From NCBI GenBank assembly GCA_030060845.1, contig CP094379.1, forward strand, positions 565,737 to 629,736: a DNA stretch of 64,000 nucleotides, given 5' to 3'. The position numbers and the translations under genes were made by a program. Positions 12,398 to 42,049 of the stretch are shown here, one piece after another; the stretch's first letter is position 1, and each line of letters starts with the position of its first letter. The stretch comes from Candidatus Midichloria sp. (GTDB taxonomy: Bacteria; Pseudomonadota; Alphaproteobacteria; Rickettsiales; Midichloriaceae). The notes below the pieces were generated by a model, which was given only the letters and a program-made list of their open reading frames with translations, was not told the origin of the DNA and searched no databases.

Positions 12398-13596
12398 CTA
12401 ATATTTGAAACTTGAAGTTACAAATTTAGGTAATTTTTTAAGTTTCTCCTTTCTGAAAATGATTGGCAAAATAATAAATAGGTGTAAGAAACACCAGGTA
12501 GTACAAAATTGTCCTACTGATATATAAGGCTCTTCTAGAAATATTCTTCCGATATAGCATAGTACATGAAGTTAACTATAAAAAATATTAATATCCTAAA
12601 AGGTCTATAATTAGCACTTCTAATTTAGAGCTGTCAAGCCAAGGAAGAGTAAATAATATAACTATTACACCAAAACAATGACTATAACTCCGCCTAATTT
12701 ATCAGGAATAGAGGGCAGGATTGCATAAAACAGTAAAAAGTACCATTCATGCACTATGTGTGGTGGGGTAACCAAGGGGTTAGCTGGAATATAGTTATCT
12801 AGATAACCTAGACTTTTTAGATTAAAGAAAACGAATCCAAAGAATTATTAGAAAAAATATCCCAAAGCCAAAAAACCTTTAACTGTATAATAAAGATAAA
12901 AGGGAATAGTATCTTCCTATGTTTTAACTTCCACTCCAGTTGGGTTGAGTCATGTTTATGCAGGGCAAAAACCTATTTAGGGTTGGGAGGGGGAGGGATT
13001 ATCACAGAAAATCCAACCCAAAGCCAGATAACAATATCTTCACCGAAAAAGGGCATAGCAAAAAGCAGAAAATAAATTAGTGATTACCTTAGTTACCAAA
13101 AAGCCCATTTATCTCCAAGGTAATATATCTCATAAATACTGTTGCCATCATAACAATAAATATTATATCCCTAAAAACCATAGAAGTTCTCTCGGGGCTT
13201 TGTAAAACCCATAATATAATGCTTTTGCTATATAGAGATATTGCTATATGAAGATATATTGCTGCAAAAAATATTGAGGCACCGACTGCATGGGTATATC
13301 TTACTAACCAGCCATAATTTACATTCCTCATTATATTTTCCACGCTATCAACCGCCATTTTTACATGTGGGAGTATATTGAATTGCTAAAAACAAGCAGG
13401 TAATTATTTAGATAATTAATATAATGCTAGCTATAGAACCAAGGTTCCATAAATAATTCAAATTTTTAGGAGTCATGTACTCTGAAAAATGCTTTAAGAA
13501 GCTAAATATTAGTAATCTATATTCGATCCACTCTATTATCTTTATTATCTTATCAATAGAGCTATTTTGGCTTGGACTAGAACCAGCTTTCATCAT
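12398..13596 (-). pseudogene. petB: Cytochrome b of the bc1 complex, heavily decayed
   Basis: Cytochrome b carries the two haems and quinone sites of the cytochrome bc1 complex. Pieces in order on the minus strand: FSFLKHFSEYMTPKNLNYLW (start 13596); SVENIMRNVNYGWLVRYTHA and GASIFFAAIYLHI (13089-13358); FGEDIVIWLWVGFSV; then PANPLVTPPHIVHEWYF, PSIPDKLGGVI and a C-terminal stretch to 12398. These follow the family in the right order from end to end. Frames shift and stops occur many times, and the PEWY-type motif reads HEWY. No cytochrome c1 gene follows. It sits behind a decayed petA, as in the usual petABC operon. Confidence 0.9.
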
Positions 13597-13602
13597 TTTT
13601 GA

Positions 13603-14185
13603 TTAACCTATTTTAACTTTATTATCACTTAAGAATTCATGAGGTGGTATAGCCAGATTTTCTGGTGCAGGACCTTTTCTAATCCTTCCAGATGGATCAT
13701 AATGTGAATCACATGGGAGAGGACAAAAAAACCAACCATAGTAATCACCTTTGCTGCTAACTGGAACGCATCCCAGATGGGTGCAGACTCCAATAGCAAC
13801 TAGCCACTGCTCTTTACCTTTTTTAACTCTTTCTTCATCACTTTGTTGATCTCTTAATTCAGCAAGACTTGCTGAGCTAGCTTCTTCAATTTAGGTGGAA
13901 GTCCCTTTTGGTAACAAAAATAGGGTTGCTGCGTTACATTACTGTGATTGTTTCGCCTTCTTTAATATTTAATAAATCAACTTCGGTGCTACCCACTGCT
14001 GAGACATTGGCATCTGGAGAAATGGATCTGATAAAAGGGGTACAGCTGCTTGTGGGTACAGCTGCTGTAATTGCGCCTATGCCAGTAACGGCGGAGGCCG
14101 CTAACAACAAAGTTTCTTCTTGCGGATTTTTTTCAGTATCTTTATCTTTTTCTATAACAGTGTCATTGGCTTTTATATCCGTCAT
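13603..14185 (-). pseudogene. petA: Ubiquinol-cytochrome c reductase Rieske iron-sulfur subunit, broken
   Basis: The N-terminal piece (13934-14185) has the membrane anchor (LLLAASAVTGIGAITAAVP) and the start of the soluble domain (DANVSAVGSTEVDLLNIKEG). The frame then breaks, with stops near 13935 and 13890, before resuming at SASLAELRDQQSDEERVKK. The first cluster motif CTHLGC is intact. The second, normally CPCHGSHYD, reads CPLPCDSHYD, so the second Cys/His ligand pair is destroyed. The gene ends at TAA 13603, seven bases before the petB start. It cannot make a working Rieske centre. Confidence 0.88.
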
Positions 14186-14280
14186 AAGGACTTATAAATA
14201 ACTTACGTTAATCGTTAATGATACTGCTGATAGAATATAGATATATTAATTCTTTGCAATAGGAATGCAAAATTATACGT

Positions 14281-40000: not shown

Positions 40001-40547
40001 ATTAGGCCCAATGCTGCAATACTGGCAATGGTGCCACCATATAAATCCCAAATTATTGGAAGATTTATCAGTCATCGCCATTAATGTTGATAGCTGAAGC
40101 CTCAGAATACCCTGTCTCACTTACATAATTAATACCATTGGATAATAAAGCTATCAGTACCACTCAAACTTGATGAATTAAACACACCTTGGATCATAAA
40201 AAAAACCTTTTAAATAATTATTGAGAAGCTACATTACCCACGCTCCCTAGATATACATTGACACGAATTAGATATTATCATCTAAAAAGAAAAAAATATC
40301 AAAATCTATTTAACAAAAAGATATTATCAATAATAGAAAAGCATATGACGTACCTTGAAGGCATGCCCCAAGAATTAGTCATTTATAAAAGTGTTTTATG
40401 CGATGCTGAAGATGTTAAGCATATCAGTACCCTGGAATAGAGATTGCTCCAAAAAATACGCTTCCTGGCATGCGATATATACTAGGTTTAAAAGATGAAG
40501 TGAAGATTGTTTATTAGGAACTTGTTAACAATCCTAATTCTGCTTCT
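40001..40547. other. Gene-free gap with an old IS5-like remnant
   Basis: No intact gene. Positions 40262-40516 are a decayed IS5-like transposase 5' end (listed separately). I see nothing in 40001-40260. Confidence 0.45.
40262..40516 (+). mobile_element. Diverged IS5-like remnant, 5' part
   Basis: It aligns with the 5' part of the IS5-like copies at 45196 and 60165 (shared ATTATCATCTAAAAAG, then GAAAAGCATA, and AAGCATATCAGTACC). An ORF of 60 codons reads NKKILSIIEKHMTYLEGMP, matching the transposase N-terminus. It is more diverged than the two large copies and stops before the first catalytic Asp. Confidence 0.65.
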
Positions 40548-41519
40548 TTAATTTTTTTTATGTTGTTTATATTGGCTCCAAATAAGCAACATGCCAGCAA
40601 TCACTATAAAAGAGTAACCAAAGTATGAGATAGCCATTTTAGGTACTTCATTAAATATTAGGTAACCTAATATTCCAACAAAAACTAACTTAAAGTAAAC
40701 AAATGGAGCTATGACTGTCATCTCCCCATATTTCATGGCATTAAAGAATGCAACATTATGAATTAGGTAAAATAGAGCAGAAGCAGCAATACCTGCAATT
40801 TGCCAGGTTTCAATCTCTAAACAGAGTGGTGAATAAAATTGGCCAGGTACATAAATTATGTACCCTAAGAAATTAACTAGATGCCAATCTACAAATGCCA
40901 CTATATATGAAAAAAGTGAGGCAAATAGCATGACATAAAATAATTGCGCTTTGTTAGAGGCTTTTCTGTGTCCAAGTACTTTAACTAGAGTACTATTAAT
41001 GGACCAACAGAGTATAGTAATCGCAATAAAAATATAAGCTTTATTGAACTCTGGAATCTTTATTTGATTACCAAAGAAAATATGATGTATTAATTCTGGC
41101 CTCACTATTAAAAAGCCGCCTGCAAACCCAAACAAAATAGCACCCACTTTGTAGCTATTTAATTTTTCATTAAAAAACAAAGTTCCTATGATTAGCCATA
41201 ACATCTGTTCAAGGTGAGTGAGGACTGTAATATCAATTAATTTTAAATAATTTAGCGAATGCATTAATGTTAATGAGCCAGTAGTACTGAAAATACTTCG
41301 ATAGAAATGCATTTTTAAATTTGGAGTTTGTATAGACTTTATTCCATCTTTGTAAAAAATCCAAGGAAGTATAAATAAAAAAACAGAGAATTTGTAAAAG
41401 AATACTGCTTGATTGGAGTTTAGCGAAACGGTTACCATTTTCATAATGGCGTAAAGCACGGCTAAGCTCAAAGCATTAATTATCATTAACCCTATTCCTT
41501 TTGCGTTTTGATAACTCAT
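40548..41519 (-). CDS. EamA/DMT-superfamily membrane transporter
   Basis: A ten-helix drug/metabolite transporter of 323 residues with two EamA repeats. The first begins AKGIGLMIINALSLAVLYAI; the second starts near 165 with FIAITILCWSINSTLVKVLG. The YLEQ-like helix in the first repeat (VLTHLEQMLWLIIGTLFFNE) and the FVYFKLVFVGILGYLIFNEV segment in the second match Rickettsiales EamA proteins, some of which import S-adenosylmethionine. The substrate here is unknown. It is related to the two tandem EamA genes at 47-49 kb. Confidence 0.88.
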   Translation of the reverse strand: MSYQNAKGIGLMIINALSLAVLYAIMKMVTVSLNSNQAVFFYKFSVFLFILPWIFYKDGIKSIQTPNLKMHFYRSIFSTTGSLTLMHSLNYLKLIDITVLTHLEQMLWLIIGTLFFNEKLNSYKVGAILFGFAGGFLIVRPELIHHIFFGNQIKIPEFNKAYIFIAITILCWSINSTLVKVLGHRKASNKAQLFYVMLFASLFSYIVAFVDWHLVNFLGYIIYVPGQFYSPLCLEIETWQIAGIAASALFYLIHNVAFFNAMKYGEMTVIAPFVYFKLVFVGILGYLIFNEVPKMAISYFGYSFIVIAGMLLIWSQYKQHKKN

Positions 41520-41654
41520 TTTATTTTGGAAGAAATTTTAAGCAAACTGCTGAATTATTAAACCATAATTTCAATGTTTGCAATCTCTATGTTTTGTTTT
41601 AGTGATATTGTTAAAAAATAGCAGAAAATTTATTATCAAGAAGTTGCAACGCTC

Positions 41655-42049
41655 TTAATTACACATATCGTAAGACTGCTTATTTAAAAGGTCATGGTTA
41701 TCTTCTGGATATTCAATAGAATTTTCTTTCCATCTTCCTGATTCCTTCAGTTCACCCACATAATAGGGCCCTTGTATCCTTACAACTATTTCATTCTCTA
41801 AACTGTTACTATGAATTCTATAGAATGATCTGAAGAAATATTCTTTATACTGCCAACTCTGACTATTCCCCCAAGCCCAACCAATTTATTGCTAACTTCT
41901 TTTCTTGATTTTTCAGTTCAGTTGGTGTGACAAAAAATATTGTGTTTTCACTAAAAATTTTTAAAGCAAAGAATAGACCTGAAGCAATAAACAATAGACT
42001 TAAAAATAATATTATTAATCTCTTATACCAATTTTTTTAGCTTTTTCAT
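41655..42049 (-). pseudogene. ccmE: Cytochrome c maturation protein CcmE, decayed
   Basis: CcmE is the periplasmic haem chaperone that binds haem covalently before passing it on to CcmF. From ATG 42049 (MKKLKK) the reading shifts to NWYKRLIILFLSLLFIASGL, the anchor helix, then FFALKIFSENTIFFVTPTEL, matching the family's ...L.dni.fFytPsEl. A further shift gives NKLVGLGGIVRVGSIKNISS, then DHSIEFIVT, the conserved fRvGGlV..GSv block. A C-terminal part reads LENEIVVRIQG, then KENSIEYPEDNHD, to TAA 41655. The LPDLFREGQ and haem-binding HDENY motifs are not preserved as such. Four frame changes make it non-functional. Confidence 0.82.

What the first reader, a model, noticed from the sequence alone, without database searches (positions are those of the whole stretch)
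12398..42049. Coordinated decay of the c-type cytochrome branch at separate loci
Relics of petB (12398-13596), petA (13603-14185), ccmF (27263-29098), ccmE (41655-42049) and a cytochrome b561 (10056-10447) lie in four separate places, while neighbouring housekeeping genes are intact. CcmE and CcmF are needed to attach haem to cytochrome c1, and cytochromes b and c1 and the Rieske protein make up bc1. Losing all of them fits removal of one function rather than random damage. If no functional copies exist elsewhere, the cell must respire through a quinol oxidase or depend on host ATP.
Basis: partly seen in the sequence, partly recalled or inferred. Interest (0 to 1): 0.78.

Follow-up and report, generated by a model that had tools for sequence, protein, structure and literature searches.

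The report
Tick symbiont shedding its cytochrome-c branch
In this Midichloria genome (a genus of tick symbionts) every gene found for the cytochrome-c branch of respiration is a broken relic, while the complex I, ubiquinone and ATP-import genes examined are intact, so the cell likely respires through a bd-type quinol oxidase or would depend on host ATP; a relative in the same genus has the same genes broken, likely by a separate loss.

Summary
Confirmed and extended. The window lies in a 933,600-base Midichloria chromosome. petA, petB and ccmF are multiply broken relics at the stated places; ccmE is a probable relic; cytochrome b561 is a relic but not part of the c branch. Outside the window ccoN, ccoO, ccoP (cbb3 oxidase) and ccmC are broken too. 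No intact cytochrome b, COX1-type oxidase or CcmF/CcmC was found in the readable genome. Intact: nuoG, nuoH, ubiA, four ATP-synthase Fo genes, two ATP/ADP translocases. The relative HscuESP (G001) has the same genes broken but intact cydAB (bd oxidase). CydA was not found in this genome, but the place where synteny would put it is withheld, so bd is undecided. Among 26 genomes the three parts of the branch are kept or lost together in 25. Public Midichloria proteins include intact cytochrome b, and the G001 relic groups with an intact Hyalomma marginatum copy (support 94/90), so petB likely broke at least twice. Best reading: recent, parallel shedding of the branch, likely leaving complex I, ubiquinol and bd oxidase plus imported ATP. 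Ordinary reductive evolution in kind, but Midichloria's cbb3 oxidase has been used to argue about the mitochondrial ancestor.

The parts
12398..13596 (-). petB (cytochrome b of bc1), relic
   Evidence: PF00033 matches only with stops inside; tblastn with intact relatives in several frames; 3 stops and 12 frameshifts
13603..14188 (-). petA (Rieske protein of bc1), relic
   Evidence: tblastn 14188-13606 in two frames; PF00355 25.0 bits on one piece; 1 stop and 1 frameshift
27263..29098 (+). ccmF (cytochrome c haem lyase subunit), relic
   Evidence: PF01578 match with stops inside; tblastn pieces 27481-29092; 6 stops and 13 frameshifts
41655..42049 (-). ccmE (haem chaperone), probable relic in three frames
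   Evidence: PF03100 28.4 bits on the X-joined pieces; 14.0 bits on the best single piece
10056..10447 (-). cytochrome b561-like relic (b-type, not part of the c branch)
   Evidence: PF01292 37.2 bits on one piece; by eye the matching place in G001 (L035) also reads in more than one frame
10565..12385 (+). bipA (TypA GTPase), intact neighbour convergent with petB
   Evidence: GTPase, EF-G C-terminal and BipA_C domains; 93% identical to Candidatus Midichloria sp. HscuESP
26046..27260 (+). xseA (exonuclease VII large subunit), intact neighbour of ccmF
   Evidence: PF02601 267.6 bits
29137..30228 (+). LptF/LptG-family permease, intact neighbour of ccmF
   Evidence: PF03739 165.1 bits
42052..44511 (-). 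PBP1A-type penicillin-binding protein, intact neighbour of ccmE
   Evidence: PF00912, PF00905 and PF17092

Best explanation
All genes found here for the cytochrome-c branch (bc1, its c-type haem attachment system and cbb3 oxidase) are decayed relics while the complex I, ubiquinone-synthesis and ATP-import genes examined are intact, so electrons likely pass from complex I through ubiquinol straight to a bd quinol oxidase, with part of the ATP likely imported from the host. Shown: the relics, the intact genes, and that the relative G001 carries the same relics beside an intact cydAB. Inferred: once a bd oxidase and imported ATP cover the need, one lesion anywhere in the branch would remove selection on bc1, Ccm and cbb3 together, so they decay as one block at unlinked loci. 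Inferred from the petB tree, codon positions and intact public copies: the decay is recent and likely happened at least twice inside Midichloria. Untested: that this genome itself carries cydAB.
For: Relics. Open nuoG (TIGR01973), nuoH, ubiA (TIGR01474 303.7 bits), atpB/E/F'/F, two TLC genes. G001: relic petA, petB, ccoN, ccoO, ccoP, ccmF, ccmC with one stop, sdhA broken, cydA and cydB open. Among the five other genomes without the branch, NuoH and CydA are both present (G001, G003, G018) or both absent (G002, G009); this genome has NuoH. Recent: differences between the two Midichloria at second codon positions are 0.071-0.117 in six relics and 0.032-0.067 in five intact controls, third positions 0.28-0.36 in both groups. 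Parallel: full-length cytochrome b in public Midichloria entries; G001 relic groups with the intact copy filed under H. marginatum at 94/90, G000 relic outside. bd plus cbb3 in M. mitochondrii: PMC4013037 (passage); its bd oxidase: PMC5322542 (passages).
Against: CydA was not found in this genome; the expected place is withheld, so this shows neither loss nor presence. SDH was also not found, which fits a wider dismantling. The relics still show codon-position bias, and petB and ccoN (0.071, 0.077) barely exceed the control xseA (0.067) at second positions, so leftover function, above all in G001, is not excluded. The 94/90 fork is just under the tool's mark for strong support, and the G000 relic has a long branch and an unresolved place. 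A ccoN frameshift lies at the same codons and direction in both genomes, which would suit one older lesion. General decay also goes on: 6 of 38 non-branch frames are broken (hand count). The rule linking NuoH and CydA rests on five genomes, two of them 80-85% complete (G003, G009).
Confidence: 0.72

Rival explanations
1. The genome has lost every terminal oxidase; complex I and ubiquinone remain only as leftovers or work with an unknown quinol sink, and the cell lives on imported ATP with its ATP synthase running backwards to keep the membrane charged.
For: No CydA, intact COX1, AOX or SdhA in the readable genome; two TLC genes; relatives G002 and G009 have no match for cytochrome b, COX1, CydA, NuoH or SdhA but keep ATP synthase subunit a and TLC.
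Against: The place where synteny would put cydAB is withheld; nuoG, nuoH and ubiA are open, with low second-position divergence for the two nuo genes; in the five other branch-less genomes NuoH and CydA are kept or missing together.
Confidence: 0.13
2. Random genome-wide erosion that happens to have hit these genes, with no loss of one function.
For: General decay exists: 6 of 38 non-branch frames broken (hand count); stop-to-stop frames of at least 100 codons cover 68% of the window.
Against: 0 of 8 branch genes intact against 31 of 37 others; the same genes broken in G001 and without a match in four other genomes, all-or-none in 25 of 26.
Confidence: 0.07
3. Assembly or base-calling errors make working genes look broken.
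For: Many frameshifts are single bases.
Against: Lesions pile up in the branch genes while five neighbouring or control genes align with gaps in multiples of three only; deletions of 20 or more residues in all occur in petB, ccmF and ccoN; ccoP is cut by an inversion; a separate assembly (G001) shows the same genes broken.
Confidence: 0.02
4. One ancestral loss in the common ancestor of both Midichloria, followed by slow decay.
For: A ccoN frameshift at codons 365/366 runs the same way in both with no net gap, and a split COX1-like cbb3 subunit is reported for M. mitochondrii (PMC4013037, passage).
Against: Cytochrome b is full-length in public Midichloria entries, and the G001 relic groups with one of them; codon bias argues that most divergence took place under selection. 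A mixed history, ccoN first and petB later, remains possible.
Confidence: 0.06

Closest known systems
Candidatus Midichloria mitochondrii (Ixodes ricinus), bd plus cbb3 oxidase
   Same: Same genus; bd together with cbb3 oxidase reported (PMC4013037, passage; bd oxidase in PMC5322542, passages); an ATP/ADP translocase reported (PMC10338478, passage).
   Different: Here bc1, Ccm and cbb3 genes are multiply broken; for M. mitochondrii a 399-residue cytochrome b is in the protein collection (P0005), though its COX1-like subunit is described as split.
Candidatus Midichloria sp. HscuESP (G001)
   Same: Same relics in petA, petB, ccoN, ccoO, ccoP, ccmF; ccmC with one stop; open NuoG and NuoH and two TLC genes.
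   Different: Fewer lesions in five of the six genes counted, equal in petA; intact cydAB; broken sdhA still recognisable.
Other bd-only members of the family (G003, G018)
   Same: No cytochrome b, COX1 or Ccm match; open NuoH.
   Different: CydA open, no relics of the branch reported by the searches, and G003 keeps SdhA.
Rickettsiales with ATP/ADP translocase (energy parasites)
   Same: Two open TLC-family genes.
   Different: Nothing here shows that import replaces respiration.

Membership tests
Cytochrome bc1 complex | open genes for Rieske protein and cytochrome b | tested here: not met
   both broken; no other PF00033 match in the readable genome; Rieske not searched genome-wide
Cytochrome bc1 complex | cytochrome c1 (petC) | not tested
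   not searched genome-wide; in 5 of 10 relative loci looked at a CxxCH frame follows petB, all five from other families of the order; in the five same-family loci none does
Ccm (system I) cytochrome c maturation | open ccmC and ccmF | tested here: not met
   ccmF with stops, ccmC in two frames; no other PF01578 match in the readable genome
Ccm (system I) cytochrome c maturation | open ccmE | tested here: inconclusive
   relic at 41655-42049 is weakly scored; PF03100 was not searched genome-wide
cbb3 cytochrome c oxidase | open ccoN, ccoO, ccoP | tested here: not met
   all three broken, ccoP cut by an inversion
bd-only respiratory chain | intact cydAB | tested here: inconclusive
   not found, but the place expected by synteny is withheld; open in the relative G001
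bd-only respiratory chain | quinone-reducing input and ubiquinone synthesis | tested here: met
   nuoG, nuoH, ubiA open; the other nuo and ubi genes were not searched
Host-ATP importing (energy parasite) Rickettsiales | ATP/ADP translocase genes | tested here: met
   two open TLC genes; what they carry is not testable here

The most novel reading that the evidence does not exclude
This Midichloria has lost every terminal oxidase yet keeps complex I and ubiquinone: a respiratory chain with an entrance and no exit, whose electrons would have to leave through an unknown sink, possibly the host mitochondrion's own quinone pool.
Probability: 0.1. Interest if true: 0.85.

Novelty: new member of a known kind. 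Interest (0 to 1): 0.48.

Why it matters
Midichloria's cbb3 oxidase has been used as an argument about the ancestor of mitochondria (Sassera 2011, seen only as a title cited in other papers). Here that oxidase, bc1 and the haem-attachment system are caught dying in two Midichloria at different stages, next to relatives with intact cytochrome b. The family offers a series for how an intracellular bacterium takes its respiratory chain apart; the genomes compared suggest, but do not prove, the order: cytochrome-c branch first, succinate dehydrogenase next, bd oxidase and complex I last. It also makes a clear prediction, a bd-only chain, for a genus whose type species lives inside host mitochondria (PMC10338478, start of abstract seen in the listing).

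Tried and rejected
Rejected: duplicates (no intact copies in the readable genome); b561 as part of the c branch; absence of petC beside bipA as evidence of loss (no CxxCH frame follows petB in the five same-family loci looked at); absence of CydA as evidence of loss (place withheld). An AtpB tree of 26 genomes for counting independent losses asked for 3 changes but did not rule out one origin, and G018 sits on a long branch: weak. A same-direction petB frameshift near codon 70 in both genomes looked, read by eye in the alignment, like two different lesions. The third protein search could not tell whether M. mitochondrii ccoN is broken: one Midichloria-named CcoN cluster (P0121) is among the 120 listed of 8000 scored. 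Papers opened by passages and not leaned on: PMC12282096, PMC6863919, PMC9352585.
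Full report
WHERE IT IS. The window is part of a 933,600-base, one-contig genome given as 97.66% complete. Its BipA protein is 93% identical to that of Candidatus Midichloria sp. HscuESP. The one same-genus genome listed, G001, holds a 5,415-base contig identical letter for letter to the HscuESP record found, so G001 is that genome. The host of the window's genome is not known to me; 'tick symbiont' rests on the genus.

THE OBSERVATION. The relics are real. Intact petA and petB from relatives match window 14188-13606 and 13593-12404 on the minus strand in broken frames, and intact ccmF matches pieces of 27481-29092 on the plus strand. 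A frameshift-aware alignment to intact relatives counts, for this genome and for G001, stops plus frameshifts of 2 and 2 in petA, 15 and 6 in petB, 19 and 7 in ccmF, 17 and 11 in ccoN, 10 and 6 in ccoO, 5 and 2 in ccoP, the last over only the first 203 of 290 residues here. With closer references the counts are 16 and 6 for petB, 19 and 12 for ccoN. ccmE is less certain: PF03100 passes its cut-off only on an X-joined string of the pieces. The b561 relic is real but is not a c-branch gene. Of the neighbours, bipA, xseA, the LptF/LptG-type gene and the PBP1A-type gene are open.

THE REST OF THE GENOME. In the readable part there is no other cytochrome b. The only COX1-type matches are broken and are part of a decayed ccoNOP operon. 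Its ccoP is split between the two strands with an intact nuoG lying between the parts, while in G001 the order is continuous, so an inversion carried nuoG along and cut ccoP. ccmC reads in two frames. There is no AOX match (the search does ring in G007 and G016), no CydA match and only two short sub-threshold SdhA matches of 16.7 and 18.3 bits. Open are NuoG and NuoH, UbiA as 4-hydroxybenzoate octaprenyltransferase, four ATP-synthase Fo genes, two of which (b and b') score below their curated cut-offs, and two ATP/ADP-translocase genes.

A CAVEAT THAT CHANGES A CONCLUSION. G001 carries open cydA and cydB. A DNA search with that G001 contig finds neighbouring genes in this genome but not cydAB, and the place where synteny would put cydAB turned out to be withheld and to read N. 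All statements of absence here mean absence from the readable part.

COMPARISON. I used 26 of the 34 genomes (this one, all 20 others of its genus and family listed there, and 5 of the 13 from the rest of the order). Cytochrome b, COX1 and CcmF/CcmC all match in 19; in two of these (G008, G021) the second PF01578 match, CcmC, has stops inside. In 6 all three are broken or without a match (G000 and G001 broken; G002, G003, G009, G018 no match; G003 and G009 are 80% and 85% complete). One, G013, 67% complete, lacks only the Ccm match. So 25 of 26 are all-or-none. Among the five other branch-less genomes NuoH and CydA go together: both in G001, G003, G018, neither in G002, G009. G002 and G009 keep ATP synthase subunit a and TLC. 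By that small rule this genome, which has NuoH, should have a bd oxidase.

TIMING. Between this genome and G001, third codon positions differ by 0.28 to 0.36 in relics and in intact genes alike. Second positions differ by 0.071 to 0.117 in six relics against 0.032 to 0.067 in five intact controls; petB and ccoN lie only just above the fastest control, xseA. So most of the divergence happened under selection and the decay is recent. A protein search with the G001 petB read-through found full-length cytochrome b filed under Hyalomma marginatum (94%), Candidatus Midichloria sp. (91% twice, and a partial at 94%) and M. mitochondrii (89%) (120 listed of 8000 scored). I take the H. marginatum entry to be its Midichloria. 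In a tree of 20 rows (the first 18 listed proteins plus the two relics) the G001 relic joins the intact H. marginatum copy and P0006 at 94/90, just under the mark for strong support; this genome's relic falls outside, on a long branch with unresolved place. petB was therefore likely lost at least twice. For ccoN one Midichloria-named intact cluster is listed. A same-direction frameshift at codons 365/366 in both genomes and a published remark on a split COX1-like subunit in M. mitochondrii (PMC4013037, passage) leave room for an older ccoN lesion. That cbb3 went first and bc1 later is my inference.

HOW IT LIKELY WORKS. bc1, Ccm and cbb3 serve one electron path. With a bd oxidase taking electrons from ubiquinol, and ATP coming in through TLC, that path is dispensable; after the first lesion none of its parts is under selection, wherever it lies on the chromosome. 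The remaining chain would be complex I, ubiquinol, bd. The bd step is shown as genes in G001 only and predicted here. That TLC proteins carry ATP inward is general knowledge of the family, not tested.

WHAT IS KNOWN. PMC4013037 and PMC5322542 (passages) give bd plus cbb3 for M. mitochondrii and an unusual bd subtype. PMC8709577 and PMC12645838 (passages), on other Midichloria genomes, gave no passage on respiration under the terms I used; the former reports that pseudogenes touch only a few functional categories in the H. marginatum strains. Literature searches (listings) showed me no report of this decay; they cover open-licence PMC papers only. Loss of respiratory genes in intracellular bacteria is known in general (recalled), so I file this as a new member of a known kind.

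Noticed in passing
L037:2937-9250 (G000), against L036 (G001): An inversion carrying an intact nuoG and two further open genes has cut the ccoP relic in two, so rearrangement as well as point decay is at work.
   Followed up: partly
window 24943-25962; L054:6705-7690: The YceG/MltG-like gene is whole here but its match in G001 falls into two pieces, a decay in the opposite direction.
   Followed up: partly
G002 and G009 (same family): No cytochrome b, COX1, CydA, NuoH or SdhA match, but ATP synthase subunit a and TLC present: family members with no visible electron transport chain; G009 is 85% complete.
   Followed up: partly
G001 contig C92:2285-4056 (L063): Succinate dehydrogenase flavoprotein is broken in G001 and not found in the readable part of this genome: the chain may be losing complex II too.
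   Followed up: partly
window about 15010-15400: By eye, a decayed transposase-like stretch near the petA relic; no family search was run.
   Followed up: no
P0005 (M. mitochondrii cytochrome b): By eye, one short stretch of this otherwise conserved protein differs from the other Midichloria copies and is a residue shorter; it may be a sequencing error or an early lesion.
   Followed up: no
window 40548-41519, 47093-48985: Three EamA-type permease genes, two of them adjacent and next to an NtrY-like sensor kinase (48982-50922).
   Followed up: no
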